From Aphrophora alni (lineage: Eukaryota > Arthropoda > Insecta > Hemiptera > Aphrophoridae): DNA of 64,000 nucleotides. This document shows, one piece after another, positions 21,896 through 50,525 of the stretch (its first letter is position 1; every line of letters starts with the position of its first letter). The DNA is taken from positions 35,834,216-35,898,215 of the forward strand of contig OY740768.1 of the NCBI GenBank assembly GCA_963513935.1. Reading direction: 5' to 3'. The position numbers and the translations under genes are program-made. The notes under the pieces are model-generated. The model saw nothing but the letters and a program-made list of their open reading frames with translations, was not told the DNA's origin and did no database searches.

Positions 21896-22147
21896 CTTGT
21901 TGTTTAAAAAAAAAAAAAAACCTCTAAGTCCTTATCGCCCTTAGAAAAGGAAAGAAACCTAAAATGAGGATCCCTAGTCCTCAAATATTCTATTAGTGTC
22001 AGGTTGGGAAGAGAACAAAAGTTGGTCAAGTGAGACAAGATAAGAAATTCGAAAAAGATAGATCTTACTGAAGATATAAAAAAGGTGTAGATTCAGCTAG
22101 GACCCACAGTATTGCCAAACTCCTTCTTACTATATTGAGATTTTGAG
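21896..22147 (-). mobile_element. SINE-like element, copy 2
   Basis: It has the family tail side TTGTTGTTTAAAA..CCTCTAAGTCCTTATCGCCC, the middle GTGTCAGGTTGGGAAG and GTTGGTCAAGTGAGAC, and the promoter side GTGTAGATTCAGCTAGGACC. A run of 14 A follows the TTGTTGTTT motif. The tRNA-like end is truncated or eroded (TACTATATTGAGATTTTGAG). Confidence 0.75.
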
Positions 22148-22353
22148 ATTCTACAAATTTATAATAATATAAGAACAATTATAAATTAAAAAGACAAAAA
22201 TGGCATGAAATATTTTAATTACACATAAAATTCAAATTATTATCTTCATTGTGTTAACGTAGAATTAATTATATTTTAATAAGCGTTCTAGAGATGTTTT
22301 TATAAGTTTTTTAGTGTTTTGTGGTGTGTAAATGCAGTGTTTTATTCATAATT

Positions 22354-22401
22354 GACTAGCCTGAAGATGCTGCCTGTATGCAGCGAAAGATGTAGCTAAG
22401 T
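22354..22401 (+). ncRNA. Candidate type I hammerhead ribozyme (HH-1)
   Basis: Seen: GACTAGC (22,354-22,360), CTGAAGA (22,361-22,367), one extra T, GCTGC/GCAGC (a perfect 5-bp stem II, 22,369-22,373 and 22,380-22,384), GAAA (22,385-22,388), GATG, T-A (22,393-22,394), then GCTAAGT (22,395-22,401). The last segment pairs with GACTAGC over six base pairs with one bulged A. Known: hammerheads need CUGANGA, GAAA and a UH cleavage site, and Penelope-type elements carry type I forms with very short stem III. Inferred: self-cleavage after 22,394. The extra T between A9 and stem II, and a one-pair stem III, weaken the case. Confidence 0.45.
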
Positions 22402-22505
22402 ATAAATACATGACTACATAGAAGGTATTTATTCAATTATTATTTAAAATCAATTACAATTCAAATATATTATCAAGAATGTTTTTACAGTGAGATATCA
22501 AAAAC

Positions 22506-22538
22506 ATTCTGCACAAAGTAAAGTAGTTTGTGCAGAAT
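22506..22538. other. Perfect 12-bp hairpin
   Basis: ATTCTGCACAAA (22,506-22,517) and TTTGTGCAGAAT (22,527-22,538) are exact reverse complements around a 9-base loop. It lies between two hammerhead-like motifs and may be part of the same transcript or element. It is too short for a typical microRNA precursor. Confidence 0.7.
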
Positions 22539-22923
22539 CATTGATTCAAAGATGAAGTTTTAGTCGGTATTTTTTTCCAAATTTTAAATAAATTATTTCT
22601 AAGACATTTTTTGTAATTTAATTTCTATTTTTTTTTATCAATCACAATTTTCAAACTCCCTTGCATTTTTTCCTGTTTCTAAATTAGTTGGTAGATTTTC
22701 CTATATAATTTTACATTATTTTCTCTAATTACCAACAAATATCTTTGTTAACGACATGTTTTATTCTTTAATCTATTTTAGAATTTTTTTTAATTCATGT
22801 GTTTATCGTATAATTGTTAACCAATTGTAATTTTTGAAAGTAAAACAATAGTTTTTTTTAAATTTCATATTTGAAAATTTAAAGTTAGCTTGTTAATTTG
22901 CCTTTCCTTAAGTTATTGTAGCT

Positions 22924-22973
22924 CTTGTATTACTGAGGATGGCGACTTTGTCGTTGAAACACGTTTGATTAAG
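22924..22973 (+). ncRNA. Candidate type I hammerhead ribozyme (HH-2)
   Basis: Seen: CTTGTATTA (22,924-22,932), CTGAGGA (22,933-22,939), one extra T, GGCGAC-TTT-GTCGTT (stem II, four Watson-Crick pairs plus two G-T), GAAA (22,956-22,959), CACG, T-T (22,964-22,965), TGATTAAG (22,966-22,973). The last segment pairs with CTTGTATTA over eight positions (two G-T) with one bulged T. The architecture is identical to HH-1: GAAA, four bases, U-H. Cleavage would follow 22,965. A related but altered segment occurs at 49,580-49,715. The extra T is again present, so activity needs testing. Confidence 0.45.
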
Positions 22974-25900
22974 TAAACGTAATTTTTGTGAGAACTTGTG
23001 TTCGAGATTTATTCTATCTTTCCTTAAGCCCAAAGTCGAAATTTATGTAACTTATCTAATATAATACCATTACCGTAAATAAAAATCAAACAGTTTATCT
23101 TCAGTCTTTAGAGGAAATGCCAGCCTCTTTTATAGTTACTGTAACTAATATATTCAACTCTTGAACTACTTCCTTGGACAATTGTAAATATATTCTCTTC
23201 TGTACAATTTTAATGTATCACGTTGTTCAATCAAAATACCGACACCCATGGTGGGATGAGTGAGATCTTGCATTTCAACATCTCTTAATTTCTTTGGCGC
23301 CGTTATATTGCCGTCATTCTATATTAGTTTCTTGGTCTACCAGATGGGAATTTCTTCAAGCATAGCCCATCTGCTTCAGGATAAACTGAAGGCATCAAAA
23401 CTTGTTATTCCTTATGAAATATTATTCTAAAATATCATAGTTGTAACAAGTCCTTTATTCCTCTATCAAATTTTATATTATAGAGATACATTAAATAGTA
23501 TTAAATTCCTACTTTTTTTTAGAAACCAAGCTAGGACCACAAGATTCATTTTCCATTACCTTAAGTATTGTAATATGTTGTAATACTTATGGTGGTACTT
23601 TCTATAATAAATTGACTAACATATATATTTTTTAAAACGAGAATATTCTTATGTTCTATGATAAATTGAAAGTTGAATGTTAAAAACCAGAACTTCTACT
23701 CAGATTGTTTTTCTATAAACATCAGAAACCTGAACACAGTAAAGTTCAGAAGCAAAGATACAAGACACAGGTTCAATATTTTACAACAACGATAAGAGTG
23801 ATATTGGATTATGAAACTAGGCACTGTTTCCATATTTATAATATGATAAAGTATAATGACTAGCTGTCCAACTTATGACTGATTGACAGATCGTAATTCA
23901 CAGTTCAAACTGTCATTCATAGTAAATAATTGCTTTCAGATTATTACTTAAATTATGCATTAATAAACAAATATAAAATAATTGAAGAGTATCAATTTAT
24001 TTGAAAATTTACTATTAAATTTACTAACATTAATGTAAATATGATCTTCAATAAGCTCTCTAGTGAAATTTACAATATTTATTTAACATTTCCCTAACTA
24101 TAATTAAAGATAAACAACGAAAAACACAATAATTATTATTTCGTGTATTCCTTTAAATATTCTAGTGTATATTCTCATAATATTATTACCAACTAGGGTT
24201 GAACTAGACCTAACATTTATGACTAAGTTTACATAAATGGTTTTCTATTTATTTTTGTTAAACTAATTACCGTAAAAGTTGGCTCCAATAAATAAAATAA
24301 ACATGATTTTTCTAGTTATTATTTATCTGTACTCTTAACTTGTCATTTTTTATGTCTATCCATTCAGGGCGATTCAATAATTTGTTAAAAGTGACATTTT
24401 AATATATTTTAACGTTATTTAATTCTAAAACATGATTGTTTCCTAGTATACGGTATGTTTATCTACGCTAGAATTTGTAGATCTATTGTGTTTTATACAA
24501 TCTTACTTAAAGTTTTTTTTTTTTTTTTTTTGGTCAAAGAATTGTTTTTTCACGTAAATTAGAATTGATTTCATAACTTCCTGACTTCCCCAACATTAAA
24601 ATGTTTTCTTTAAAGTATTTATTTGTTTAAGAATAAATTAATGTTAAAATTACAAACATACCCATTCGTAAGGTTAAACCAATTAATGTAATAATAAACT
24701 AACTTTTCTCTCTTTCTGTGTGACAATAGTTGAATTTTTTCTAAAATTTGTTATCTATGTTTTATTACTATATTATTATTTATTATTATATTACTTCGGA
24801 AACAAACCCATTAAATTTACCTTGCATTATAAAAACATTGATTGGTAAGAAGGATTTTAATGGTCCTATAGTATTAAGTACTGCTACTTTGTGCTTATAG
24901 GGATGTATCTATTTAAAATAAATGTTATTGTTTTTTATAAATTTAAAATAAAACTCTTTTTTCGTTTTTAATTTCAATAAAAATATTCCTGATCAGGTGC
25001 TAATTTATACTACCATTACCTCAAAAAAATTATGTTGAATATTCAAAACTTAATTCTCAAAATGAATATATCAATGTTCTCTTACTGATTCAACTTGCAG
25101 CCCTTTTATTAAAAAAAGGCCGGCCTCTAAGCCACCAGAGACTGGTGATTTTATAAACTTCCTTATTATTTACGGGGGGGGATATTTAAGTTACGATATA
25201 GTATATTACATAAAACCAGTTATAAAACCTTTCTCTGTTGTGATTTCAGACAAAAATGTTTAAGTTCTTATCTTTTACATCACTGAATGTCAGAAAATGT
25301 TACCCAGCAAAGTACCAATTTTAGCAGCAAGTAAAATTTTGTAAATTTACCTTGTCAAAATATATTAAATGGTTGGTAAATAAACATAAGGTATGAAATT
25401 TTAACTTTACATGTTCACTTAAGCGCATAGTAAATTCTGATTAGAACATGTTTATTTAATTATCGCCTAAGAAGAACGTTGTTTAATAATTTCTGAATAA
25501 ACTGTATTCGTTGTTTTTAAACAAATATATGATATTTCCAAGTTTTTTAATAATAGGGATTTGTAATTAATTTATAATATTATTGTTTTATAAACATCTA
25601 CGTGCCTATGACGTTCTAGAAGATAACGTAAAATTCATGTTTGTCTTTATTTAAAATATTTCAAATAGTTTTAAATATTTGAAATAATTTCAAAATTTCT
25701 AATAAGAGGACATACTCTTAAAAATTACTATGTAATAATTATTTACCATTTCATTCATTTTATATATAGTTCTAAGTAAAGAAAAGGGTTAATGAAGCCA
25801 GCCACCAAAGACCGTTCATATTCTCAGATCTTCAAAATAAATAAATGTTATACATTTCTTAAAACTGGACATTTTTCAATAATTTATACCAACCTCTTTC

Positions 25901-33925: not shown

Positions 33926-34350
33926 CTAAATAATAACGACTCTGTGGGAGTGAAAACAAATTTGTGAGTTCAATTATTGTTCCTCACAACTTTATATTTA
34001 TTTCCACTTGCGTCAGTTAGTAGTTTTTAATTACTTATAACATTTAATTATTTTATTTGGTCTGTCACGTGACTTTTTAGCTAAGAATCGACATGTTTTT
34101 TTTAATTATAAGTTGTAAGTCATTTTAAACATCGCCTTAGATACAACAAAATGCAAAGTATTTTTTAATCTTATATCACCTCAATTTCTTGAGGAATGAA
34201 ATTTAATGTATTTTAATAGATCAGAAAACAGATAATTTCGCAACTTTAAGTAAAAATCTTGTATCATCCAATCTGTCAAAAATTATTACCAAATTGGACT
34301 ACAATTAAGCCAAAAGACAAAGAATCAAGATCACTTTATCTACCAAAACA

Positions 34351-34361
34351 CCCCCCCCCCC
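34351..34361 (+). repeat. Poly-C tract (11 C)
   Basis: An uninterrupted C run followed by CTCTCC. Confidence 0.95.
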
Positions 34362-35299
34362 TCTCCATGCATACTTTAACCATACAAGTTGGTTTTATCA
34401 TTTCATTTAATGAGCTAAGAAAAATATGACTCAATTATTTTACAATTAGCCTATATTAGGGTCTGTGCGGGCTTGTTAACCATACTATTAATTTTAGCAA
34501 AGGAATTTTAAAACAAAAATATTGACCTGTGTCCGATTAGAACTAAGACTGTAGTGCTACTGTTTATCAAAAAACAACAGCATGGCTAAGAGGACTTTAG
34601 GGATAATTACTTTTTTCTTAATATTTATATAGACGGATTGCCTATTCTGATTTTATGATTTTAAAATGTATTAAAATCTGTCATTCATGCTTGATTTTCG
34701 TAAACCCATAATAATTATGTATTTTTTGCAATGAACGTTTGCAATTTTTTTTAAATATATAATTCTTCTAAATTTCTGCTATCTTAAGGTACTCATTTCC
34801 CTTAAATACTCTAATATTTTCTCTACTATCTACCTTAAATGTGCACTATAGAACCTAAAATTTAACAATTATGGATTTAAATAACACTACAAAGTCAAAA
34901 AGTGCAGTATACTGTTCTGATTCCCATCATAAAATTAATAAGCAATGAGATACCATTCGGCAGCAATTTCGTAGTTCATAACCTATTTTTATGCATTTTT
35001 TTACAGTCCTGCCCCTGAAATGCATTAGCTGAAGTATGTGTCTTAGAATGGTATCCTACAGAAATGACTTTTATTTAAACACATATACTCTACATTGTTT
35101 ACATAAAATGTATTAAACGCGTATTGCTTACGTTTTAAAATGTATTGCTTTTAAGAATTATACGATTTGTTATTTGGTTGAAAGAGAAACCATGATAAAT
35201 ATAGCTTGTTAACAAAGTGATAAACGTCGAACAAGTGGATTTAAAAAAACGTAAATTTGTGTTTATATTGGAGCATTGCTAAACAGCAAAACACGCATC
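34362..35299. other. AT-rich non-coding DNA upstream of the candidate promoter
   Basis: No gene is recognised. A T-run followed by CAG (near 35,006) could act as a splice acceptor, but no convincing exon follows. Confidence 0.45.
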
Positions 35300-35344
35300 C
35301 AGAGGAAAAAATGCAGGGAGGGTGAAACAAAACAATTGTATCTG

Positions 35345-35683
35345 GTATTTCATTGGTAAATTCCCTACCCAAACACTGTATAAAAGGAATCAATTATTAA
35401 TTTCCATTTTTTTCTGCGGGGAACTGGGACGGGCGTTTGACAGCAAACCCCTCCCCTCGTCAATATAGGCTTGAGATCACGTGACATACAATATACAATC
35501 AATGGCTGTGTCACCAATGAGCCCTATTTAACCCCCCACCCCACCCCTCCCACCGGAACAACAAATATACAAATTGTAGTCTATTCCATGTTACACTTTC
35601 CACATAGAGGCCCAATCCCGCTCGAACCACATCACATATGTTACTAGTGTTGCGGAGTGTCGTGTTTGTGTATAACTGTGATA
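35345..35683 (+). promoter_or_regulatory. Candidate promoter and 5' untranslated region
   Basis: This is the most promoter-like segment of the window. It has a TATA box TATAAAAGG (35,379-35,387), an inverted CCAAT (CATTGG, 35,351-35,356), CACCAATGAG (35,511-35,520), a CACGTG E-box within TCACGTGAC (35,477-35,485), C-rich boxes (CCCCTCCCCTCG; CCCCCCACCCCACCCC near 35,530-35,545) and locally high CpG. It leads into an ATG with good context and a splice donor. Transcription start is unknown; about 25-30 bp after the TATA box would be near 35,410. Confidence 0.45.
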
Positions 35684-35701
35684 ATGGAATCTGTGATTGA
35701 G
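35684..35701 (+). CDS. Candidate first coding exon (MESVIE) ending at a splice donor
   Basis: ATG at 35,684 has A at -3 and G at +4, a good start context. Six codons (Met-Glu-Ser-Val-Ile-Glu) lead to GAG followed by GTAAGT (35,702-35,707), a perfect 5' splice site, in phase 0. It lies about 300 bp downstream of a consensus TATA box in GC-rich DNA. No second exon is recognised in the remaining 28 kb, so the intron would be long, or the prediction is wrong. The product cannot be named. A 67-codon minus-strand frame over the same DNA is regarded as spurious. Confidence 0.35.
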
Positions 35702-35707
35702 GTAAGT

Positions 35708-38098
35708 ATTCCATAGAATGGCCTAGTTTTTAACCAGTCAACTTCCTTGAGGGTTTAGGCCTAATAGTTGACCTACATTCCATATATTGGCAAGTATTTA
35801 TAATAAGCAATAAATTCACTTTGTGAGATTAGAATGGCCTATATCGTAAAACTATAATCTAAGAGGTACACAAATTCACAAAACCACTATTTTAAGATAA
35901 TATTAATAGTTTGAATTTCGAATTCGTTGGTTTCTAGATAGACTCATATACTATTTTCGTTATAAAATTAATTAAAGGTTCTCATTTTTTCTAACTCCTA
36001 CTACAGCTTTAAACAAGTTAATCTCTATTAATATTAGTTTGCAATAAAAAAGTAGCTATCAAACGTCACTGAAAACATTTATCCTAATTCAAATTGCCTA
36101 AAAAACAGGCTAATTAAATGTATAATCCAACCCTTAGGAATACATCTTGTGATTGTAAAAAGAATCTGGTGGGGGTAGGACAATGGAGGGGAGGTTTTGT
36201 TTTAGGTTTCTTCAATAAGGGTGAGAAAGAGGGGTTGCAACATAAATCTAAACGGCTAAACAATTTAAAATAAAATAGGATTGTTTCTATAGAGGGAACG
36301 ATAATTAAGGAAAAGTCCTTGAAAATTTTCTTTTTATTATCGAATATATTGTGTTCATATGTTATTGAGTTTAATATTCATTTATATAGTTAAATAACAT
36401 AACAATAAACATGGTTTTATGTGTAACTTAATTAAGTAACGTTAAATATTAAAATTTTAATTTTAAAGCAAAATAAATTCAGAAGAATCTTAAGTTAATT
36501 AAATTTAATACAATACTCCTTACATATAAGAATGATTGTAGTCATAAATCGTTTGTACATAATATAATTTTTTTAAGACATGTAAATGTAAGCTTATGTT
36601 TTAGGCCTATACGAATTGAAGAGAACCCAAAGTTGTACTCCTAAAAATTATAATTAATCAAGTAAAATGAATATTTTACAATAAATAAATGGCAATAATT
36701 TAGTTCTTAACGTTTATAATGAAGACTATGAAATCTACATTTGGATTCAGATTTCACGTCTGTATATTCAATTGTGGTTTATTTTCGCTATAGTATATAT
36801 TTAGCTCCACTTATATTAGTACAGGAAAACTAAATTTAATGAATTTTTGAAAATTTCCCAGATGTTCAGTATATTGGTCTTTGTGTATATAAAACTTATT
36901 TTAAAATAAACAAAATATTTATATGATTTAAATCTTATTATAATTTCAAAATAATTCTAATCTAAGCATTTAAAGTAGCTAAAATTTCAATTTTATTCCC
37001 AACTTTAATGTCTCTTATCCAATACTTCGTTCTATTATAGTGATTTATGAAGCCTGTGTTTTCAAACATAAGAGTTTTGATTTGAAACGTTTTTTAAAAT
37101 TGTACCATTTTGAGTAGACGTTTATTAAACATTACATGGCATTTTCCTTAACGATATTGTGCTCACGTTACTTCCAATAAATAAACAAGATTTTATTTCT
37201 TCAGCTCACACAAAAAAATGTTTAATGAATATTTGTTTAAATACGTACCCAAACTAGGAACACTGTTTTCTTTTGTCATTTAGAAGTTAATATATCTATA
37301 TAAATACTCTTAGTCTCTCTTTTTAAAACTATTCACCCGTTACTTCAAACCAGTTTTATAATAATATAATATCGTCCTCTCCAATGAGTAGTTTCTAAAA
37401 AAGCAAAGAACTACACACTACAGAAGTGAAACTTGTTTTCTAAAACTGTACATAGGCTACACACCTGGTTGGAAATAGGTTAGATTTGTGAAGTATTTCT
37501 CAATGATTATATACAATTTATTAAATATTTGATTTATTATTACCACATTTCCTCAGATTCATATTCCAGAAAAGAGATAATTGGTTTATAATAACTAAAG
37601 TTTAAATAGAATATTTTTGTTTGTAATTGTTTGTAATCCTCAAATACAGCGTCTGTTCCCAATTTAGTGCTGGATACATTATTAATTTTAAATTAAATTT
37701 ACGATCTAAATAATTGCTGCTATGGAGCAAAATTTACATTAAAATCGCAAAATGTAGAGTAATTGAGAAAACTCAATTTCAATAAATTGTTTATTAGAGA
37801 CGTCATTATTTAGGATTAAAGTTTGTCTACAAATATAATGTGAACAAAGTAAATATTGAAATACAATTAATTGCTAATACGTTATTACGTTTTAACAAAT
37901 AATATTGTCGTTGTATTCACCACTTCAATGTAGTTTTGAGTACGATTAATATGAGACATTACAAACACAATACATACGTATGATATGCACAAAATAATAT
38001 TTTAATATAAATAGAAGTGTATTATAATGTGTATACGGTACTCAGATTAACGTGGCGATTTTTCTTGACTAAGGGACGCAAATTGATTTTACCCTTTC
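35708..38098. other. AT-rich DNA, putative intron
   Basis: No exon or recognised repeat. TAGGCCTA occurs at 35,756-35,763 and 36,602-36,609. If the exon before it is real this is intronic. Confidence 0.45.
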
Positions 38099-38330
38099 GG
38101 GGCTCAGTCATAGTGAATACAGGTTTAGCCTCCCCGAGGGACCCAAGTAGAATCTATACATTAGTCTTGGGTTAGATCACTCTCTATCAGATTTCTCTTG
38201 ACCAAAGCTTGTTCTTTTCCGATTCTGACACTATTGTATTATTCAAGGGTTAAGGAACTTTATTTCTTTATCTTTTCTTATTTTTAAAGCTATGATGACC
38301 GATAGGTTTTTCCCCTTCAAAAAGTAAGGA
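38099..38330 (+). mobile_element. SINE-like element, copy 4
   Basis: Promoter end GGGGCTCAGTCATAGTGAAT (38,099-38,118), then CCCCGAGGGACCCAAGTAGA, GTCTTGGGTTAGATCACTC, GATTCTGACACTATTGTATT, and the tail TATGATGACCGATAGGTTTT with TCCCCTTCAAAAAGTAAGG. The order is the exact mirror of copies 1-3, confirming opposite orientation. Confidence 0.75.
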
Positions 38331-38373
38331 AAAATATGGTTTTCGGAACTATAGAGGTGGGGGTCGAGTCGCA

Positions 38374-38400
38374 TTGACTCCCAGAAGAGTGGGAGTACAA
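38374..38400. other. GC-rich hairpin
   Basis: ACTCCCA (38,377-38,383) and TGGGAGT (38,390-38,396) form a perfect 7-bp stem around GAAGAG. The stem is extended by TTG/CAA with one bulged A. It lies just past the SINE-like copy in a short GC-rich patch (38,355-38,450) that matches nothing else here. Confidence 0.55.
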
Positions 38401-38621
38401 CGTTTAATTACATGCTCACCCGCGTCAACCCTCTACAGTGCACAAGGAATTTTTTCCCAAAACATAAATTAATTATAGTATATAATTTTCTGCATCTCTT
38501 TTACTTCCATGCCTTAATATAAAACCAGTAATTAGGCTATATTTTAAATATGGTCATTATTATTAAGCATATTGTTACAGCAAAGGCAAAATAAGATTAA
38601 AACAGGCAAAGTGTTATAAGA

Positions 38622-38624
<3 letters not shown>

Positions 38625-38681
<57 letters not shown>
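38625..38681. repeat. (TA)n microsatellite
   Basis: About 28 perfect TA units. Confidence 0.97.
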
Positions 38682-38683
<2 letters not shown>

Positions 38684-39526
38684 CTAGGTGTCGTATGTGA
38701 AAAATTATTGAACTTTTTGCCGTTTTAGAAACAATTTAGTTTGAATTTGATATTTAATAAATGAATAGAATAAACAAAGTAAATTTACATTTCAATAATA
38801 TGTGCTTGCCATTTACCTATTAAAGGAGGATTATAGTTGCAATCAGGTTACATATTTTCCATTTTACAAGCAACCTCAAATATACGAAAAACCTACAAAC
38901 AATTTCACTGACCAGAGATAACAACGATAAACAATCACTTTCACTAATATTCTCTCCTAATGTTTAAAGTCCTTATGTTTTCATTTGTGTTTATTGGTCT
39001 CAGTGTTTACTCATTATTAACCCATATTTGAAATTTTGATCCACAGGTTCAACGTTTACACATTAAAAAAACTACTAAGTTTTTGAAAATATGTTGACAA
39101 ATACTGATTAACATTTAAAATGTATTATTAAAGTTCTTTACTATTACTAAGAACATTTTAAATTTTCGGCGATGTTTATATTTTTTGAGATTTTCAGGAA
39201 TATGCATCAAAATAAATCTTAATCAATGTGAACAAAATATGCGTCAATAGAGGTTTCTAAGAACCTCCTTCGTCTAAACAATATAAATGTACGATTAACA
39301 CTAGGACTTCTTCTCATCCCCCCAAGTTTAAACCAATTATCTACGCATCTGAAAAATATAGACGAGGTCCCCTCTTACGAAACCGTACAATGTTTGGTCT
39401 TAAACTTTCCACTATCATTTAAGGGTTTGACGATAATGAACTTCATCGTTAGGTTACGATGATCCAGTTTTTTATTCCACGAGTCACCCGTACTCTTGTC
39501 TCATATCTTAATCATAAAAGAGATCC

Positions 39527-39528
<2 letters not shown>
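38682..39528. other. AT-rich non-coding DNA
   Basis: Nothing recognised. Confidence 0.5.

Positions 39529-39561
<33 letters not shown>
39529..39561. repeat. (TA)n microsatellite
   Basis: About 16 TA units, 850 bp from the preceding array. Confidence 0.95.
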
Positions 39562-39563
<2 letters not shown>

Positions 39564-40194
39564 AAAAAATCAGAAGTTGTACAAAAATAAAACTTATTAT
39601 ATTCGTTGTAAATACTGAGTGAACTAAATTTTCATTTTATGTTTATACACTATTGGTCAGCCCAGCAAGCATTGTTTAGAATTCAAATTCATATAGTACG
39701 CAATAAAATTATATATATTGAAATTAATATCAAAATTCTAACATATTGTTCAATATCTGCCCCTCCTTCAGAGCCATATATAAAACTCGTATGAGTTTTA
39801 AACGTGCAATAAGTTTTATCTATCATAACATACATTTTAAACATAGCCTACATAACGTCAAATTTAAAAAAAATTAATCATTTAATTAAATTTAAATTTA
39901 GTTTAATTCGTTACATAGACTTTCTGACTTTTTATTACAAATTTCGGTAAATGATTACAATAAAATCTGAACTCCTAGTTCAAAAAGTGTGAATTGAATG
40001 AAACTGTAAAAATTGAATACGCCCTACCTTAACTATGAGTAAAGATTATAGATTGTGAAATTAGACTCAAAGTGGTTGAAAACTCTAGGTTCAGCTATGG
40101 TAACCACACGACACAATGTCGGTCCTAACTAAAGAAGTATTATTGTTATGAGGTATACTTACTGTTCTTGTGTGTCTGTGTTCTCTTGCAGTAC
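39562..40194. other. AT-rich non-coding DNA
   Basis: Nothing recognised before the palindrome-rich repeat. Confidence 0.5.
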
Positions 40195-40598
40195 ATTTTT
40201 TTCGTCATACTGCTTCAAAAACAGCTGTTTTCAATACATGCATTGAGATGCTAAAGTTGTTCTTTATAGTCCTAGGACGTAAAAACATCAGCTGATGTTG
40301 AGGTCATCAGCTGTTACTTCGTTTATACGAATTAACTAACGATTATAAAACATCTAAAAAAACAACCGATACTCTCGATAATAACCGTTAAAACAGCTGT
40401 TACCATCGATTTGAAGGCAAATAGGTTATAAGATTTTAGTTTTTGAGAGATTATCTTATATTATTTGCAGTATAACGAAAAATATATTTCATCACTTGGA
40501 CCAAAAGAAGCTTTTCCATCCTCGCTTATTTACCGAGTTAAACTTGAGCTTGTATTGAAAAGCTTCACTTTCGGTCCTAGTGATGAAATATACTATTA
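40195..40598 (-). mobile_element. Palindrome-rich repeat, copy 2 of an inverted pair
   Basis: The reverse complement matches 17,052-17,465 along its length; shared blocks include CTGCTTCAAAA, GAGATGCTAAAGTTGTTCTT, TCCTAGGAC, CCGATACTCTCGA and TATTTGCAGTATAACGAAAA. Perfect palindromes within it include AAAACAGCTGTTTT (40,215-40,228), TCCTAGGA and CATCAGCTGATG. Arms ATATTTCATCACTTGGACC (from 40,483) and GGTCCTAGTGATGAAATAT (40,574-40,592) form a hairpin. Four CAGCTG sites occur in 200 bp. No coding capacity is seen. Confidence 0.75.
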
Positions 40599-40654
40599 AT
40601 CTCATTGATGCGTAGTATAGAAAAATTTGAAGAAAATTAACGTCTAGTATTTTA

Positions 40655-41390
40655 GAAATATATTTGTTTCGAGGTCACCTGAGTCACAACAAAGTGGTTT
40701 TTGGAATGGTGTCGCTCTGGTAACGACAGCCTGTACATTGCTCTACAGCTAAACGTATGCGACGATTTTAATAAAATTTTGTATGATATTTTTTCCCTAT
40801 CTCGGGACTTTGTTCATTCTTTCGGTAACCGAAAATTTGGGGGTAGTTGCATTAAGAAAAACAAAAAATTATGATGTTTATCAAATTTTGCACAAGTGTG
40901 TTTCTAAGGACACGAATAATATATATGGGCCCCCATCTATTTACAAATTTCAGTTCTTGAGTTATCGGTAAGCAACCTAAAAATCGTTTATGAGGCTGTT
41001 ATTGAAGGTATCATCGGCTCCAATGATTCTGTTCAAATTAGAATGAAGTGTAAAGGTTAATGACCTAATCCCAAAGTATTAGACTTCAGGAATGATTGGC
41101 AAAAAAAATAATCTTATTAACGAGCCCCCTTTTTTAAAGCTCGATTATAAAACGATTAACGCTGATGATGCGTGTATGGCTCAAGTGAAGCAAGTTTAGG
41201 CTATATTTAATATTATAAGGCCTAATATATAAATATGTTTTTCAGAAAGCGACAATGATATATTTTCACTTTTGATCTTAGTTGAAATTTTTTTTTACGA
41301 ATAGTTTTATTGATTTTTAATTGATTTTTAGAATGAACGAGTGAGAAAATTAGTGCAATATTTTTCATAGTTTATTTAGCATGTTTTCTT
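40655..41390 (+). repeat. RPT-1 interspersed repeat, uninterrupted copy
   Basis: GAGGTCACCTGAGTCACAAC, GGTTTTTGGAATGGTGTCGC, CTGTACATTGCTCTACAGCT, CGATTTTAATAAAATTTTGT, CTTGAGTTATCGGTAAGCAA, GAATGAAGTGTAAAGGTTAA and the 3' signature GAGTGAGAAAATTAGTGCAA (41,340) occur in family order over about 740 bp. The 62-codon frame at 40,783-40,971 is inside the repeat and shows no known motif. Confidence 0.6.
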
Positions 41391-41398
41391 GAACAACG

Positions 41399-41445
41399 CC
41401 TGATGATGAATGCTACGTATTTAAACAGCAATAGTGTGTATCGCA
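41399..41445 (+). other. Weak CTGATGA motif after RPT-1
   Basis: CCTGATGATGAATGC lies just beyond the RPT-1 signature. No stem II and no GAAA follow, so a hammerhead cannot be drawn. It is kept because the same CTGATGATG string recurs at 53,244, 56,879 and 61,931 (-). Confidence 0.25.
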
Positions 41446-41689
41446 TGATGACAAATAATTAATGAATTTATTTTTGAAAACTAGACATCTTAATGACTTG
41501 GAAGAATAATTATCTTTTTAATCCCAAAACCACAAACCTGTAACTTATTTCATGTACTGTGTTTTTTTTAATGTTTAGTTTTTATTCGAGATGCTTTATT
41601 TCAGTCGACAATTCAACAAGTAACTCGGCAGCCTTCGTGTGTAATCCATATTCTATATAACACAATTACCAACAATGACGGTCATTTGA

Positions 41690-41990
41690 AAAATACAGAG
41701 TGAATTAAGGAAAGAAGGGAGAATTTTGTTTAATGGGGAGGAGAAAAATATGTGTGAGCAATAAACGCGTGGGGATGGAAAGTGGGTGAAAAACTGCAAT
41801 CATGAATTTGTTCGCAGCTTTTATAATATCTCCCCTCGTAAATAATAACACTTTTTGAGATCAAGTATTCATGTTGATATTCCCTGCACCTTGCAGTCTT
41901 CTTGTGTAAATGTATCGAGCATGACTTTGACGTAATATTCATTTACATACGTCAAAAAGAGGGTGGGAGGGTGACCCAGCATGAAGCAAA
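41690..41990. other. Purine-rich higher-complexity island
   Basis: GGGGAGGAGAAAAATATGTG, AAACGCGTGGGGATGG and GAGGGTGGGAGGGTGACCC stand out from AT-rich flanks. A 70-codon minus-strand frame runs through it without recognisable motifs. A regulatory or exonic role is possible but unsupported. Confidence 0.2.
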
Positions 41991-42271
41991 AATCCAATTA
42001 CAGAATAACGGTGAAGATGTGTCTAAACTGTGCTTACTGAAAGATGCTTCAGATTAGAAATTTTTGTTAATTACAGAATAATGGCTTAATTAATGAACTT
42101 AATTTTATTAAAATTCTCAACTAAGACACGAACAGTAGAATACAAATATTCTAATAGTGGCTTCTATTACTAAGTCATCAACAAATAACATAGGTTATAT
42201 TTCGTCATTAAGGACTTGATACAAAACCTCTCACGTCTTCTTTTATTGTAATGAATATTTTTCCTTATGTG

Positions 42272-42470
42272 AGTTTGTGTGAGAAGGACTAAATAAAAAT
42301 CCAATAGGCTTTCCCAAGTACTAGCTGCATACACACTTTTTTCGTATAGTTTTGGGTTAGACTCCTCTCTTTCCTATCATGTCTCTATTAACCAACTATT
42401 GCTCATTTCCAACCCTGACGATATTATAGTTTTTAAAACTAACGACGGCTGGAAACTTAGCAAAACTTTT
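42272..42470 (+). mobile_element. SINE-like element, copy 5 (eroded)
   Basis: CCCAAGTACTAGCTGCATAC, GTTTTGGGTTAGACTCCTCT, CCTATCATGTCTCTATTAAC, CCAACCCTGACGATATTATA and the tail CGACGGCTGGAAACTTAGC follow the family order. The promoter end is strongly altered, making this one of the oldest copies. Confidence 0.6.
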
Positions 42471-42800
42471 TCTCACGCACGCACACTTACAGACATCCTG
42501 CCTAATGAGTGATTCACCAACTGCAACCTCTTTTGATACAAAGACAATTTACTTAGTGTTTCTAAATTGTTAAGTAATGCTTATTGAATCTTAATTTTCA
42601 TAAACTTTTGATTGAAAACTTTTCAAAATAAGCCATTATTAAAACAAAAGGGAGAAATAATGTGATTAAAAGAAAAGTACAATAATAAAGAAAGAATGTA
42701 GAATAATATTTATCATGATTGATAAAACCGTACCGAATAATTACATAAACTACAAAAATGTTATATAACATATCATAACTGTAATCTAGAGAGAGATAAA

Positions 42801-43100
42801 GTGATAAACTCAAGTTTTATTCCGATAATAATGGATGCAATCTACGAATCGGAAACTATAGAAATGACGAAAAAATCATTGATTCTGGAATTAAATTGCG
42901 CAGTAGTGAGACCACCAAAATATGCGTTGTATGGAATGGACTTGGAGATAGTGTGTACTATCAATATCATCTCAAAGTCAAATAAACCATTACTCCGAAA
43001 TTGAATATCGAAGAAGAGTTCCACCAAAATGTTCATTTCTTTAAAATGAAGCCCAAGAAGGAGTGTGACTTACATTTGCTATTTCCTGAGATTATACAAT
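42801..43100. other. Balanced-composition segment beside the LINE fragment
   Basis: Both strands are open for 64-67 codons (plus 42,801-43,004; minus 42,842-43,036), with no recognisable motif in either. It lies just beyond the stop of the reverse-transcriptase relic, so the simplest reading is the LINE 3' untranslated region or an adjoining unknown element. Confidence 0.25.
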
Positions 43101-43104
43101 TGGA

Positions 43105-43640
43105 CTATATGACCGTACATAAAATATGACGCCTCTTTATCCTACGCCAATACTTTTATCTCAGTCTATGTCTACCACCCACTTTCGGTTCTACCTCCAC
43201 TATTCGTCTACAATTCCGTCTTTGACATCTTGACATTCTCTGACGCCGAAAGTTTCACTTAAGGCTCTCTGTAATAATGTGTACTTTCTGAATATATTTC
43301 CCAACCATCTATACTTTCGTTTCTTCAGAGTAGTTGGAATTGGTTCCTGATCGGTTCCACGCCGTTATTATTCATTTCTGATGTTCAATGTTTTATTTAT
43401 AAACGCCCCGCGTTTACTTAGAACTCTGTTTAGTTGTATTCCAGATTTCACAGCCGTATAAAAATACATATCTTAATTTCCAATCGAAGATTTTCTGTAA
43501 AATTCCAAATTGACCATATCTGAGATAATGCTTGTTGGGTTTTCCTGATTCTGCCGGCTATGTCTTCGTGGCTCCTTCATTCGCTATCATCATACTCCTT
43601 TCGGCGTATCAGAACTTGTGAACTTGTTAATACGATATTA
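43105..43640 (-). pseudogene. LINE (non-LTR retrotransposon) reverse-transcriptase C-terminus, broken
   Basis: Three frames read on the minus strand give, in order, DIAGRIRKTQQALSQIW (about 43,566-43,520), YVFLYGCEIWNTTKQ (about 43,471-43,425), LKKRKYRWLGNIFRK (about 43,330-43,286) and RRIVEVEPKVGGRH (about 43,208-43,160), with the last stop at 43,105-43,107. This is the usual order of the thumb and C-terminal region of endonuclease-reverse-transcriptase LINEs, where xLLYGxExW and KKRKWRWLGHxLRK are characteristic. At least two frameshifts and several stops separate the blocks. The catalytic palm motif and endonuclease are missing, so the relic is 5'-truncated and inactive. The clade (RTE-like or similar) cannot be fixed from this piece. 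Confidence 0.75.
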
Positions 43641-45941
43641 AGCAATATATTTTCCCGACAACTGCTTTTAACACACCTCTTTAATTTTTGGCATTCATTC
43701 CTAATCGATCCTTAACAGTTTTAACTTGGAAATTGTTCTTTACTCAAGCCTCTAAATGAGAAAAAATGGTCAAATATATTCTACCTGAGAAAGGTACAAA
43801 CGCACGATAGAATTGACGATGAAATCAATTGATCCAAAGTGGATTAAATGATTGTCAAGATGATCGATGTCAATAGTGGTAATGCAAATTTATCTATGTT
43901 AAGTACACATAAAATATAACGAGGATTAGCTATAGGATCGTCAATGAAATCCATGATTTCCCGGCCTAGAGGATCAATGCTTCTTGTTCTGTTTAAAGGA
44001 GTCTAACACCAAGTCTGAGTACTCTAGATAGTCTATTTTTCAGGAAGAAGTGAAATTTTTTAAAATTTTCCATTAGAAAATTGCAACCAAATTCCTTATT
44101 AAATTGCACTTGTTCAATTTGGTTTGGAACTTGCCAAACTTGCCAAACAACTTGCACTTGTTCAAACTCTTTTATTTGGTTTTATCTTATAAAACAATTT
44201 TCCTTAATTTAATCTTATTCATGGCTTGCATAATATTGATACGTAATACCATTATTAAGTCGGACGTTTCTAACTATCAAACGTTTGTTAACCAAATGTT
44301 ATTCGGTTGAATAAAGACATATAAAATCCACACTCAAAAGATGACGCAAATTTAGTATAATTTCAGCATATTAAGTTTAATTTTTTTTTGTATCAATTTG
44401 TTATTGCTTTTTGGAAATAATGTAACTATTATTTGCTGTATTTGGAGCCACAAGACATGAAATAAATTGTTGCTTAAGATTACTCTGGTGCTGAAATCTA
44501 TTCGAATCATTCGTTTACAGAAATCCAATTTGCCATCAGTTTGGAAACAATGAAATAATCAGTGAGACATGATTAAATGACCAATTCCTCGTTGCATTTC
44601 AATCCGGTAAATTACCAGACAACAATCTGGTATCAGCCTAACAACTGACTTATTGCCTTATTCTCAAGAGAGAGTGCTAACAGATTTAGTGGGAGTTGTA
44701 TTGGCTCCCACTTTGGAATCAACTACAGCCTTAATTTATGAATAAATAACTGTATTAAAGTATTTTAACCTCAACTAAGATCAAAACTAAGGTGCCATAC
44801 ATTCTTTACGTTAAACATTACAGGATTCCAGAATAACTGGTTTGGTTAAATTTAAATTAGATTATTCCAAATATTTGTTAAGGGTCTTCAAAATTATGTA
44901 AATTTTAAGTTTCGTAGAAAAAAAGTACAAAAAAATCGTGCCCTCCTCTCCTCCTTATACTACATGTCCTCAGTACACTTATGAAATGCTTAAAGATATT
45001 TTGATGTTTTATTTTTTAGTTTCAAAATTATAATTTCATCTTAGTCTACACATAGACCACTAATATTTATCATTAGTGAAAAAATCCATGAACATCGATT
45101 CGGTCATTTAGGGTAAAGGAATAATTATTCCAAATGTCCATATATTTTCATTTTCTGTTTATATCGTTTTTGTACAGACTTGGTCGTAAAATAAAAATAA
45201 TGTTTCTTTACTAAATATTAAATGTCGTATCCCAACTTTGGACAATTAAATTTTGATATAAAAATTTTCGATTTCAAAAATTACAACGTAGATTTTACAA
45301 TAAATAACCCATTTTCTTAAATCTAAACTAAAATATTTTTCAGCTTTCTTATAATGAATCTACGACATTTTTTAAGTAAGAATTTTGTACTGAACCGTAA
45401 GACAAAAATATTTCAAAGTCACTGATTATGAAGTAAGATAATACAAGAAATGCATGATAAAATAGGCCTAAATGTGTAAAACTAGAGAAATGCAAATACT
45501 TTTTTTCTATATATGTAATACTTGTGGATAAAATACAAGCTGTTTTTAATTGTCCATGTTAGATTATTTTTTTTAGTACATTATGAAATTTTCAAAATTT
45601 ATTAAAAGAATTGCAGTTATAAACTAGCATTCCTAATAGGGAATTTATAGAAATTATTATTAAAATATCCTTCGATTTTCGGCTGTCTGATACATATTAA
45701 TAAGTCTGACTAATATAAGTTTAACAAACTTTAATCTTGTGTAAACGTTTCAAAGATCGCAATTTCGAGCTGTTTTTTCTCGAAGTTATAAAAGTCTAGT
45801 TATACGAATTGTAGTAAAAAGTCGCAGGTCAGAAAAAGTGATCAGTATATTTTATCATTTCAGCCGATTTTCAGTTTGTATAATGAATGAGTTTCCTTTT
45901 ATAATATTCACCAATATCCTTCAACAATTACTCAATTTCTT

Positions 45942-45944
<3 letters not shown>
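43641..45944. other. AT-rich non-coding DNA
   Basis: No gene is recognised. Near 44,100-44,170 a short local duplication of TTGCACTTGTTCAA (44,104 and 44,151) flanks AACTTGCC repeats. TAGGCCTA lies at 45,463-45,470. Confidence 0.45.

Positions 45945-46009
<65 letters not shown>
45945..46009. repeat. (AT)n microsatellite
   Basis: About 32 perfect units, the longest TA/AT array in the window. Confidence 0.97.
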
Positions 46010-46011
<2 letters not shown>

Positions 46012-47585
46012 CTGTGATAACATATAAGCGATAACATTTAAAAATAAGGGGGGAAATAGCATGAACATAACTTCAAAATCAGCCATAACGACTCTTGTAG
46101 CAGAATTTTAAATAAATTTCACCAAATTTAGTAAGTGAATTAAGTTATACATTTGATTTAATATCATTGTTACTAAAATATAGTCACATACATTTTAAAA
46201 TGGCAACAGTTTGAAACGGTTTGTCAGTTTATATGTTTTATCTCCGAGCTAAAATAAAGTCTATAGTAATATAAGTTGGTTAATGCATATATTTATACAA
46301 ATATTGAGGTTGGCAAATAAGAGAATACAATATAATAGGCCTATTTATATTTGCACCAAACTAATTTCTTGTTAACTAAAAGACTTGTAATCACAGAATC
46401 AATATGATATAATCTAGTACTTGTTGCTTTTGATAATAGCAATAAATTTGTCTTATATTTCAAACAATTTGTACAATAAATTTGTAAACAAATTAAAAAT
46501 AAACTCACAATTGCGATTTTAATCAAATTCAAAAATATTTAAATGGAATATTTTATAATGTATGTGGTACATAATAATAAAATAAAATTACATTTTATGT
46601 GCTAATTATTAATGGAAAGTTAAATAATTAAAATTTGTAAATAAAACTTTGTTGTGTTGAAACTATCAATATTATATTTAACAATATATGGCAAAACCTA
46701 TTAAAAATGATGCGGAATAGTTGTCATTAAATGAATTGTTATCGTATTTATGGAATCAAAATTGCATTCCAACAGATTTAATTAGGTTTTACAGGTGCAA
46801 ACGGAGTAACATTGGATATAAAACTTTTATTGCTTCTCACAGTCCTGCTCCCTATTACAGCTATTAAGTTTTAAGGTCCAATGCAATTTCAAGTAATAAA
46901 ATATTTTATTGTATTTCTGTTTTCAATTGCTTTAATACTTTCTAGAAATATCTCAATTCGATTAAATTGAATATAATATTAGATCCCATTCAACAGGTTG
47001 GCTGATTGCTGAAATTATTAGAATAATATTAAATTAAATTTTTTTTTTGTTTTTAAATAAGAAAATAAATATATAAGTTGAAATATTTATCTACGAATTT
47101 CAACACGTTTATGATATTGTAATTGTATCCATCAATAGTATTCTAAAATACAAAGAGAGAAAGAGATCATGTTATTAAAGTTGTGACAGATTTTTAATTT
47201 CTGAAATATAAAGAAAGTTATGTGAACAGGGAAAAATCGATAAGTTTTTTGATAAAATATAAGGTTTAGATTCTCTGAATCAATAAAAAAATTTTGGAAT
47301 GATGATTGTTGTTTTGTATGTGTGTTTGAGAAAGATAATACTGTGTTTTTTTCTATTTTTCTTTTGAACACATATTATAATTTAAATTAACCCTTTATAA
47401 TTACTACTCATACATTTGTAAGCTTCACTTTTTAACCTGTCGCACTTTAAGGTTGAAGTTTTACTTAAATTAAAGAATAAAACTAAACATAGAAATGTAA
47501 ACAACATTCCGTTGATGAAAATAATTTATCACTACTAGAAAATTTATAACACAAAATATTTACATGATAGATTACCTTTCCCCTC
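46010..47585. other. AT-rich non-coding DNA with traces of repeats
   Basis: TTTTAAAATGGCAACAGTTT near 46,192-46,211 resembles the arm of fold-back FB-2 (CAAAATGGCGGCNGTTT), suggesting a decayed fragment. No gene is recognised. Confidence 0.4.
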
Positions 47586-47811
47586 CTTGTTGTTTAAAAG
47601 CGAAAAACTCTCAGTCATCATCGCCTTGTAACGTTAAAGTAGAGAAGAACATAAAATAAAGACTTCTAACCAGGACAGGAAACGAACAAGAGTTGGTGGT
47701 CTCTAAGGAAAGATAAAATAGAGAGATCTAACCAAATATTGTAGGATCCAGCTAGAGTCCATCGAACTGGTACTAAAGATTGCCATCCTCGTATAGTGAG
47801 CCACTGAGTGG
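47586..47811 (-). mobile_element. SINE-like element, copy 6 (near full length)
   Basis: CTTGTTGTTTAAAAGCGAAA with ACTCTCAGTCATCATCGCC (tail), AGGACAGGAAACGAACAAGA, GTTGGTGGTCTCTAAGGAAA, GTAGGATCCAGCTAGAGTCC and CCTCGTATAGTGAGCCACTG (promoter end). The CTCGTATAGTGAG string in the promoter end is close to the family consensus. Confidence 0.8.
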
Positions 47812-48535
47812 ATTATAAATTATAATTCTGTAATTTCATTGACTTGTTAAATATCCTACAACAATTTAATATGTTTTAACTATGTTCTTCAACTGTTTTA
47901 GTGTTTAAATTAGCTTCTTCTACAATAAATATATGATATATGTATTGAGGTTGAACGAAATTAAATTAATAAAAAAGTAACGAGTTCTAAAGGAATAAGA
48001 GATATTTCAAATATCACTAGTGGAGTCAAGGGATGGAAAATATGAGTCTATAAATTAATCGAATCCCTATCAGACTACAAATTGTTATTTATTAAATTAT
48101 ATTAGAGGATTTTTAAATCAGTTTTTTAAAGAATATTAAAATATTTTGACCTGAAAGTAATTAATTTTTTGGACCCTAATTTCTACTATTGGAATAACTT
48201 AAATGTTTTATGCATATACTGTACATTAAAAAATAATTTTAAATTAATAAGTAAACCATATGAATTAGAAAATTTTGCATTTAAAAACATTCGAACATCG
48301 TGTTCGTATGTTATCTTACTCTTTGGAGAAGATTGTTTGATGATATTTGTTTTTAAAAAAACACAAAATAATCAAGCCTTTGGCAATTTTTTACAACTTT
48401 ACAGTTTTATTAAACATTTATGAAATAAAACAACGTAATTTACATAGTTTTTTTACTCCTTCACTTTTTTAATTATAGCCAATATACATTTGGCTTTATT
48501 TTTTATGTTCACATAATTGTTATATACACTACTAA
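47812..48535. other. AT-rich DNA with an 84-codon chance frame
   Basis: The plus-strand frame at 48,169-48,423 encodes an N-, F-, K- and L-rich peptide without motifs. Its composition is what AT-rich random sequence gives, and I do not call a gene. Confidence 0.45.
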
Positions 48536-48790
48536 AGCCCTCAGATGCTCAATACAGTGAGTACTATAAACAATCCCCAGGGTCCTAGCTGGATATACAC
48601 CTATTCTCACGTAGTTACCTTGACTTAGTTCCCTTTTGTTCATCTTTCCTATCAGATTGACCAACTCTTTCTCTTCCGACTGTGACGCTATTTGAGAGGG
48701 GCTTGGGGGTTTATTTTATCTTTTTTTCATATTTTCTTTTATAATAAAATATGATTGTGACTGAGAGGTTTTTCGACTTTAAACAACAAG
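48536..48790 (+). mobile_element. SINE-like element, copy 7 (near full length, best promoter end)
   Basis: Starts AGCCCTCAGATGCTCAATAC, with an A-box-like CAGTGAGTA (48,555-48,563) and a B-box-like GGATATACACC (48,591-48,601) about 40 bp apart. The middle follows (CCAACTCTTTCTCTTCCGAC, GTGACGCTATT), then the tail GATTGTGACTGAGAGGTTTT with TTTAAACAACAAGAC. It clearly shows the tRNA-like promoter to tail order from which family orientation is assigned. Confidence 0.8.
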
Positions 48791-48917
48791 ACAAAACTAT
48801 ACTTAAATATTTCAAAGCAAAATACCCATTTAGTAATATAATCTTAAAAATAAATTGTTAAAAATAAATAATGAACCGAATGTCTGGTAACTCTAATGAT
48901 GTGATTTAACCAAGTTC

Positions 48918-49109
48918 ATTTTGAGTTTTCAATTACAGCAGTCAAGGTTTTTAAAAACATTATTTCTGAAACTTAATTTTCGTTTATACCATTTTTTAAA
49001 GTCTTTAAACTTTGCGTTTCATCAAAATTTGAACGAAATAGGTTTAGTGGATATTAAGAAATTTCGTCTTTAATGAAAACTCCATGACCTGTCTTATTTG
49101 TTGTTAGTA
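48918..49109. repeat. 192-bp direct duplication, copy A
   Basis: Starting TTTGAGTTTTCAATTACAGC and ending CTTATTTGTTGTTA, it is about 94% identical by eye to 50,526-50,714. The inner part (TTTCATCAAAATTTGAACGA and on) is the minus-strand body of RPT-1. The high similarity contrasts with the strong decay among other RPT-1 copies, so this pair is a recent local duplication or was homogenised. Confidence 0.85.
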
Positions 49110-49559: not shown

Positions 49560-49579
49560 AAAAGAAGTTTCATAAACAA

Positions 49580-49715
49580 AATGAAACACGTTTCAACGAC
49601 AAAGTCTCCATCCTCAGTGCTACATGAGCTACAATAACTAAACTTTAACTCTATTAGTTTGATTAAGTAAACTTAATTTTTGTGAGATCTTGTGTTCGAG
49701 TTTTATTCTCTCTAA
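49580..49715 (-). ncRNA. Hammerhead-like core (altered) joined to an HH-2-like tail
   Basis: On the minus strand CACTGAGGATGGAGACTTTG followed by TCGTTGAAACGTGTTTC repeats the HH-2 core (CTGAGGA, stem II, GAAA, four bases, TT). Here stem II has a mismatch and the flanks do not pair well as stem I. At 49,660-49,715, on the plus strand, lies GTTTGATTAAGTAAACTTAA with TTTTTGTGAGATCTTGTG, almost identical to the sequence downstream of HH-2 (22,964-23,000). The two halves of one element are therefore in opposite orientations here. Confidence 0.4.
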
Positions 49716-49754
49716 TATCATCTCACAAGTCAATATTGATAATTATTTATTCTA

Positions 49755-50236: not shown

Positions 50237-50283
50237 TTTAATGTAAGCCTACATCTTGTAGCATTAAATCCGAGTCTTATTTT

Positions 50284-50522: not shown

Positions 50523-50525
50523 AAT

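What the first reader, a model, noticed from the sequence alone, without database searches (positions are those of the whole stretch)
22354..22973. Two hammerhead-like ribozymes in tandem, 571 nt apart, same strand
Both motifs share CTGANGA, one extra T, a base-paired stem II, GAAA, four loop bases and T-H, and in both the flanks pair as stem I with a single bulge (six and eight pairs). Two unrelated sequences reaching the same fold argues against chance. Predicted cleavages after 22,394 and 22,965 would release a 571-nt RNA containing a perfect 12-bp hairpin, a retrozyme-like layout. Penelope-type elements and retrozymes are known to carry type I hammerheads. Against: the extra T in the core, and the two motifs are not copies of one another.
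Basis: partly seen in the sequence, partly recalled or inferred. Interest (0 to 1): 0.82.

Follow-up and report, generated by a model that had tools for sequence, protein, structure and literature searches.

The report
Two decayed Penelope retrotransposon hammerhead remnants
The two ribozyme-like motifs are real, but they are most likely the worn-out ends of two separate insertions of a common kind of jumping element (Penelope-like retrotransposons), not the two ends of one small unit that makes RNA circles.

Summary
In detail: both motifs lie at the stated coordinates, cuts would fall after 22,394 and 22,965, and two such motifs in 64 kb are far above chance (0.005 expected). The tandem-retrozyme reading does not stand. 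Motif 1 (F1) and motif 2 (F2) belong to two different dispersed repeat families of this 1.7-Gb genome. The 446 bp between them match only themselves. F2 is a ~106-bp insertion with its own 9-11-bp target-site duplication. In L039 an F2 relative lies between a GIY-YIG endonuclease end and a reverse-transcriptase frame, the pseudo-LTR/ORF junction of Penelope-like elements (PLEs). A tandem PLE with ~800-aa open frames has the same kind of motif there. The 'extra T' is the rule in this genome. Head-to-head pairs, tails ending in a stem-loop and short duplications match published PLEs (PMC3846280, PMC11167929, passages). Both window copies lack the palindromic stem III of the five family representatives compared, so cleavage is doubtful. 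F1's PLE origin rests on anatomy alone. Verdict: new members of a known kind, small PLE hammerhead variants.

The parts
22278..22434 (+). F1 repeat copy: decayed element end with hammerhead variant and tail. Other copies start matching at 22267-22347 and most stop at 22399-22447. A piece 22237-22282 also matches L025 (82.6%), perhaps the remnant of a partner. A tentative AT-rich 9-bp repeat AATTATTAT at 22235 and 22435 would put its left end near 22246.
22354..22402 (+). F1 hammerhead variant (stem I, CTGAAGA, extra T, stem II, GAAA, GATG, TA). Family majority is GAAACATGTA; this copy has G for C at 22389, which breaks the ACATGT palindrome.
22455..22900 (.). Interval between the two insertions, one match (itself) in the genome; holds the 12-bp hairpin 22506-22538.
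22902..22912 (.). Left target-site duplication CTTTCCTTAAG of the F2 insertion (9 bp if the element ends at TATCT)
22913..23018 (+). F2 repeat copy: 5'-truncated element end (end of pseudo-LTR, hammerhead variant, tail ending in the loop of a stem-loop); 92-96% identical to the 39 other top-scored copies
22924..22973 (+). F2 hammerhead variant (stem I, CTGAGGA, extra T, stem II, GAAA, CACG, TT)
23018..23028 (.). Right target-site duplication CTTTCCTTAAG
49580..49646 (-). Third F2-family copy with a degraded hammerhead (CTGAGGA T GGAGAC TTT GTCGTT GAAA CGTG), left half of a head-to-head pair
49657..49731 (+). Right half of the head-to-head pair: F2 tail and stem-loop without the hammerhead core

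Best explanation
Each motif is the fossil of an independent, 5'-truncated insertion of a Penelope-like retrotransposon (PLE). In a PLE a small type I hammerhead variant lies at the junction of pseudo-LTR and ORF, followed by a stem-loop. Reverse transcription starts inside the RNA near that stem-loop and often stops soon, so many insertions are only about 100-150 bp: the end of the pseudo-LTR, the hammerhead and a tail. A second copy is often laid down head-to-head. Shown here: the repeat family of each motif, the link of F2 to a PLE, the target-site duplication of the window F2 copy, the tail end inside the stem-loop, the head-to-head bias. Inferred: the priming model (from published PLEs), the PLE origin of F1 (same anatomy, no linked ORF seen), and weak or no ribozyme activity of the two window copies.
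For: F1: 44 matches from 40 scored of 350 candidates. F2: 60 matches from 40 scored of 3233 candidates, the 39 other best copies 92-96% identical with nearly fixed ends. Interval single match. F2 duplication. L039, one of 20 pieces fetched blind: GIY-YIG end, non-coding stretch, F2 hammerhead, leader, RT frame (PF00078, 1.3e-11) in that order; of 120 listed of 1421 protein relatives, 34 by my count carry the GIY-YIG domain. A tandem PLE with ~800-aa open frames has CTGAAGA T GACAAC TTT GTTGTT GTAA TAGCTA TA upstream of its ORF start. Head-to-head: 20 of 20 second matches for F2; for F1 10 of 30 loci within 650 bp, 8 of them within 150 bp, none tail-to-tail. The F2 tail ends in the loop of a TTGTGAGA/TCTCACAA stem-loop. 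Published PLEs: head-to-head pseudo-LTRs, 8-10-bp duplications, tails (PMC3846280, passages); hammerhead at the pseudo-LTR/ORF junction, priming inside a stem-loop, both strands cut and extended (PMC11167929, passages).
Against: No PLE ORF was seen next to an F1 copy (by-eye comparison of the coordinate lists, both capped). The GIY-YIG match in L039 is below Pfam's cut-off (20.6 against 22.6 bits), though the top homologue passes. Within F1 there is no covariation beyond shuffles. Of seven hammerhead stretches folded alone, only the two F1 ones take hammerhead-like stems as lowest-energy fold; the five from F2, L029 and L044 do not. 8 of the 20 F2 partners lack the tail rather than the 5' part, which both-strand priming alone does not explain; self-priming is proposed for rotifer PLEs.
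Confidence: 0.92

Rival explanations
1. Retrozyme-like unit: the two hammerheads bound a 571-nt segment that is cut out of a transcript, circularised and re-inserted.
For: Two hammerhead-like motifs on one strand, 571 nt apart, with a stable hairpin between.
Against: The interval matches only itself. The motifs belong to different families. F2 has its own duplication. Animal retrozymes are multicopy repeats giving RNAs of about 170-400 nt (PMC7229834, abstract and one section read).
Confidence: 0.02
2. F2, and perhaps F1, are SINE-like non-autonomous elements: a defined ~107-130-nt hammerhead-plus-tail unit that PLE proteins mobilise in trans, rather than merely truncated PLE copies.
For: Very high copy number: 4 firm and 2 weak F2 sites in 20 pieces of 10 kb, roughly 34,000-51,000 per genome if these pieces are typical.
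Against: In a sample of 38 of 40 scored tail matches the 5' ends are spread over at least 60 nt rather than fixed, as expected for truncation. At least 5 of 20 fetched copies run further upstream into shared sequence.
Confidence: 0.15
3. Chance resemblance or convergent hairpins with no link to hammerheads.
For: Rfam finds no hammerhead; lowest-energy folds favour other structures for F2; no covariation within F1.
Against: Expected 0.005 per window; palindromic stem III in 5 of 5 representatives and stem I pairing well above shuffles; position at two PLE junctions. Rfam also finds none in five better-preserved sources, so its silence is uninformative.
Confidence: 0.02

Closest known systems
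[quoted passage not shown] Lunse, Weinberg and Breaker 2017; neither is held, both seen only as citations and as described in passages of PMC7761336 and PMC6155905)
   Same: Type I layout, almost no stem III, thousands dispersed in non-coding regions of animal genomes, found at PLE pseudo-LTRs, may cleave through dimers
   Different: All 25 distinct descriptor hits in the sequence held carry exactly one extra nucleotide between A9 and stem II. Whether the published variants do too could not be read. In the Anolis PLE the ORF is said to begin at the start of stem II (PMC11167929), which would fit CTGANG-ATG; that is my inference.
Anolis carolinensis Poseidon PLE (PAc; PMC11167929, passages)
   Same: Hammerhead at the pseudo-LTR/ORF junction, priming inside a stem-loop of the RNA, both strands cut and extended
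   Different: There the cut lies 26 bp inside the ORF and cleavage needed the PLE protein. Here the L039 element has no ATG at the motif and the L109 element an in-frame stop, and the likely ORF starts lie about 100-200 nt further on.
Penelope elements of the rotifer Adineta vaga (PMC3846280, passages)
   Same: Head-to-head inverted pseudo-LTRs, 8-10-bp duplications, optional tail, solo pseudo-LTRs
   Different: The word hammerhead does not occur in that paper (0 in the listing)
Animal non-LTR retrozymes (PMC7229834, abstract and one section)
   Same: Hammerhead in a non-coding repeat
   Different: Those are multicopy repeats, often tandem, with classical type I hammerheads; the window pair is not one repeated unit

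Membership tests
PLE small hammerhead variant | CTGANGA, stem II, GAAA, UH in type I order | tested here: met
PLE small hammerhead variant | Stem III absent or very short | tested here: met
   family majority ACATGT or ACGCGT leaves room for about 2 pairs within one molecule
PLE small hammerhead variant | Location at the pseudo-LTR/ORF junction of a PLE | tested here: met
   For family F2, in L039; the window copy itself is truncated. For F1 no ORF-linked copy was seen.
PLE small hammerhead variant | Self-complementary stem III that would allow a dimer (my inference; the 2017 paper was not read) | tested here: not met
   Present in 5 of 5 family representatives, absent in both window copies (AGATGT, ACACGT). 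ACACGT is common in F2 (8 of 21 aligned copies).
PLE small hammerhead variant | Self-cleavage as a dimer | not testable with these tools
   needs in vitro transcription
Canonical type I hammerhead (Rfam RF00163) | Covariance-model score above gathering | tested here: not met
   whole genome none at E<=0.001, but the control genomes did not ring either
Canonical type I hammerhead (Rfam RF00163) | Stem II directly after CTGANGA | tested here: not met
   one extra nucleotide
Animal retrozyme | Repeated unit with the same hammerhead in each copy | tested here: not met
   different families; interval matches only itself
Penelope-like element insertion | Short target-site duplication | tested here: met
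   window F2 copy 9-11 bp; F1 only a tentative AT-rich 9-mer
Penelope-like element insertion | RT with GIY-YIG endonuclease in the master element | tested here: met
   For F2: L039 RT PF00078 1.3e-11; GIY-YIG 20.6 bits, below the 22.6 cut-off, while its top homologue has 30.5. Not shown for F1.

The most novel reading that the evidence does not exclude
The one-nucleotide insertion before stem II together with a palindromic stem III marks a distinct hammerhead subclass that works as a dimer and is shared by several PLE-type families of this genome. It also sits in the units of chromosome-clustered 159-bp (and perhaps 193-bp) satellite arrays, which would then make RNA circles with the PLE-type rather than the classical retrozyme hammerhead.
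Probability: 0.15. Interest if true: 0.5.

Novelty: new member of a known kind. Interest (0 to 1): 0.3.

Why it matters
It explains a high-copy repeat pattern of this genome (CTGANGATG - hairpin - GAAAC) as the ends of Penelope-like elements, and shows that two hammerheads near each other need not make a retrozyme. The genome offers very many insertions in which the unknown role of PLE hammerheads can be tested; a first look at 38 insertion starts gave no clear footprint of cleavage.

Tried and rejected
Retrozyme unit: rejected by the single-match interval and the separate duplication. Rfam as arbiter: set aside, since it also gives no hammerhead in L109, L029, L012, L060 and L101. Covariation inside F1: none beyond shuffles (84.6% of cells paired against 8-39% for slid partners, but covariation score 0.082 against a shuffled mean of 0.092); one family of common origin cannot test the structure. 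Covariation within F2 was not tested. RNA cleavage footprint: a tail-only query starting at the predicted cut (no bias upstream) gave 40 scored places of 1280 candidates, of which 38 were fetched (one of the other two was already held as L070). 5' ends lay within 5 nt of the cut in 3 of 38 (L072, L091, L094) and at 41-42 nt, the start of stem I, in 4 of 38. Five rows (L083, L084, L085, L087, L089) were mis-anchored by my script and read by eye: one begins about 16 nt upstream, four carry the hammerhead. L082 and L108 are identical upstream and may be one event. No clear peak. Pfam on two of the window's six open frames of at least 110 aa: nothing. One search used a placeholder one-pair structure and says nothing. 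My notebook gives 9 of 30 F1 head-to-head loci; recounted it is 8 within 150 bp and 10 within 650 bp. No structure prediction and no covariance model of my own was made.

Full report
What is there. A descriptor with one extra nucleotide, stem II of at least five pairs and GAAA is expected 0.005 times per 64 kb in order-2 Markov sequence (400 simulated windows, both strands) and is seen twice on the plus strand; the descriptor was fitted afterwards. Rfam's covariance models find nothing in the window. They also find no hammerhead in five sources holding better-preserved relatives, including the junction of a tandem Penelope-like element with long open frames, so this silence carries little weight. 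Energy folding is no strong support: motif 1 folds into hammerhead-like stems alone but not with 150 nt of context, motif 2 not at all, and of seven family stretches only the two F1 ones do.

Two families. The window lies in a 1.7-Gb genome (G000:C3:35834216-35898215). Motif 1 belongs to a dispersed repeat (F1): 44 matches from 40 scored of 350 first-look candidates, 75-95% identical apart from the window itself and one 26-nt piece. Motif 2 belongs to another (F2): 60 matches from 40 scored of 3233 candidates; the 39 other best copies are 92-96% identical within 22907-23025, nearly all from 22908/22913 to 23015/23020. In 20 pieces of 10 kb fetched at round-number coordinates, F1 has 0 matches and F2 7 matches at 6 sites, two of them weak. 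That would be roughly 34,000-51,000 F2 sites per genome, a rough figure. The window itself holds one more F2 site, a head-to-head pair at 49580-49731.

Not one unit. The interval 22455-22900 matches only itself in the genome (the search skips very common words). F2 is flanked by CTTTCCTTAAG at 22902-22912 and 23018-23028, right at the ends of the family unit. Two random AT-rich 20-nt flanks share a 9-mer in 199 of 100,000 trials, so this is very probably a target-site duplication. F1 has only a tentative AT-rich 9-mer (22235 and 22435). The two motifs therefore most likely arrived separately.

What the families are. L039, one of the 20 blind pieces, carries on its minus strand, in order: a 132-aa frame with a GIY-YIG match (20.6 bits, below Pfam's 22.6), a stop, about 440 nt of non-coding DNA, an F2 hammerhead (GTATCA CTGAAGA C GACGAC CTT GTCGTT GAAA CGCGTC TGATAC), a leader with a stem-loop, and a 471-aa reverse-transcriptase frame (PF00078, 1.3e-11). 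A search found 1421 relatives; the 120 listed are 36-54% identical, 34 of them by my count with a GIY-YIG domain, and the six that name an organism come from a lacewing, mosquitoes and a springtail. This is the partial-tandem ORF - pseudo-LTR - ORF order of PLEs. The genome holds many PLE frames (97 matches from 90 scored of 10307 candidates), a number of them uninterrupted at 640-828 aa and some tandem at about 3.2 kb. Upstream of the ORF start in one such tandem (L109) lies CCCT CTGAAGA T GACAAC TTT GTTGTT GTAA TAGCTA TA AGGG: the same design, but with GTAA for GAAA.

Design rules. In the sequence held (window and L001-L050) the descriptor finds 27 hits (25 distinct, as L001 repeats the window), every one with exactly one extra nucleotide before stem II (T in 22, G in 2, C in 1), although 0, 1 and 2 were allowed. 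Most of these loci were fetched for similarity to F1 and are not independent; three hits come from the blind pieces, one of those weak. Extra core nucleotides elsewhere in the hammerhead lower activity in published tests, though one in the GAAA part was thought tolerable (PMC3088659, passages). Five representatives (F1, F2, the L029 array, L044, L109; L029 and L044 may be related) have different stem I and stem II sequences. Pairing is specific for F1, F2 and F4 (6, 8, 8 pairs against at most 5 with other arms), slight for F5 (4 against 3) and absent for F3 (3 with its own arm, 4 with two others). All five have a palindrome between A15.1 and U16.1 (ACATGT, ACGCGT, ATGTACAT twice, ATAGCTAT). 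I infer that this lets two RNAs share a stem III, which would fit the title of Lunse et al. 2017 (seen only as a citation). Both window copies lack it (AGATGT, ACACGT); ACACGT is common in F2, 8 of 21 aligned copies. Within F1 pairing is 84.6% but shows no covariation beyond shuffles.

How the copies arose. F2 copies reach TATTCTATCT or nearly so, in the loop of a stem-loop (TTGTGAGA/TCTCACAA) that lies before the ORF; 8 or 9 of the 20 fetched copies run on through its 3' arm. Of 40 scored F2 places 20 have a second match, all 20 head-to-head (18 of the 20 at E<=0.001). Of 30 F1 loci 8 have a head-to-head partner within 150 bp and two more within 650 bp, with no tail-to-tail pair. For rotifer PLEs head-to-head pseudo-LTRs, duplications of 8-10 bp and tails are described, and self-priming is proposed (PMC3846280, passages). 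For the Anolis PLE, cutting and extension of both strands and priming inside a stem-loop of the RNA are shown in vitro (PMC11167929, passages). 8 of the 20 F2 partners lack the tail instead of the 5' part, which fits self-priming or template jumping better than both-strand priming.

Is the ribozyme used? In 38 F2 copies chosen only by their tail (of 40 scored places), 5' ends lie within 5 nt of the predicted cut in 3 and at the start of stem I in 4, with the rest spread (five rows read by eye). So there is no clear footprint of cleavage. This is in line with the Anolis study, which found no reads ending at the cut and no effect of ribozyme mutants on insertion in vitro, though the ribozyme did cleave when the PLE protein was present. 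The two window copies are most likely inert; this is inference.

Limits. F1 is assigned to PLEs by anatomy alone. Copy numbers are extrapolated from 200 kb. Genome searches score only the best candidates. Whether the published PLE variants also carry the extra nucleotide could not be read; the two key papers are not held. Paper searches.

Noticed in passing
L029:2062-3109 (G000:C16:41332642-41333689); related arrays at many C16 positions and 192-193-bp relatives on C11: Tandem array of a 159-bp unit (6.7 copies) with a PLE-type hammerhead variant; the descriptor is met in 3 units, others read by eye have changed cores. Of 241 matches (40 of 1190 candidates scored) most listed ones are on contig C16 in many separate arrays, with 192-193-bp relatives on C11 and single matches on C14 and C273. 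A chromosome-clustered hammerhead satellite, closer to a retrozyme than the window pair.
   Followed up: partly
L109 (G000:C1:20171150-20171900): Junction of tandem PLEs with ~800-aa open frames carries the hammerhead variant with GTAA instead of GAAA, and a run of about 40 A upstream.
   Followed up: partly
window 49580-49731: Degraded head-to-head F2 pair directly beside a degenerate ~20-bp tandem array (49751-50234).
   Followed up: partly
window 22506-22538: Perfect 12-bp hairpin ATTCTGCACAAA/TTTGTGCAGAAT inside the single-match interval; origin unknown.
   Followed up: partly
window 21915-22101: Matches two places in L009 at 70-75% identity: another dispersed repeat just upstream, not identified.
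   Followed up: no
window 61931 (minus strand): Weak hammerhead-like match CTGATGA T GAC (loop of 10) GTC GAAA with a 3-pair stem II, found only by the laxer descriptor.
   Followed up: no
F2 copies L051-L070: Two preferred 3' ends of F2 insertions, in the loop or beyond the 3' arm of the stem-loop, as if reverse transcription started at two sites.
   Followed up: partly
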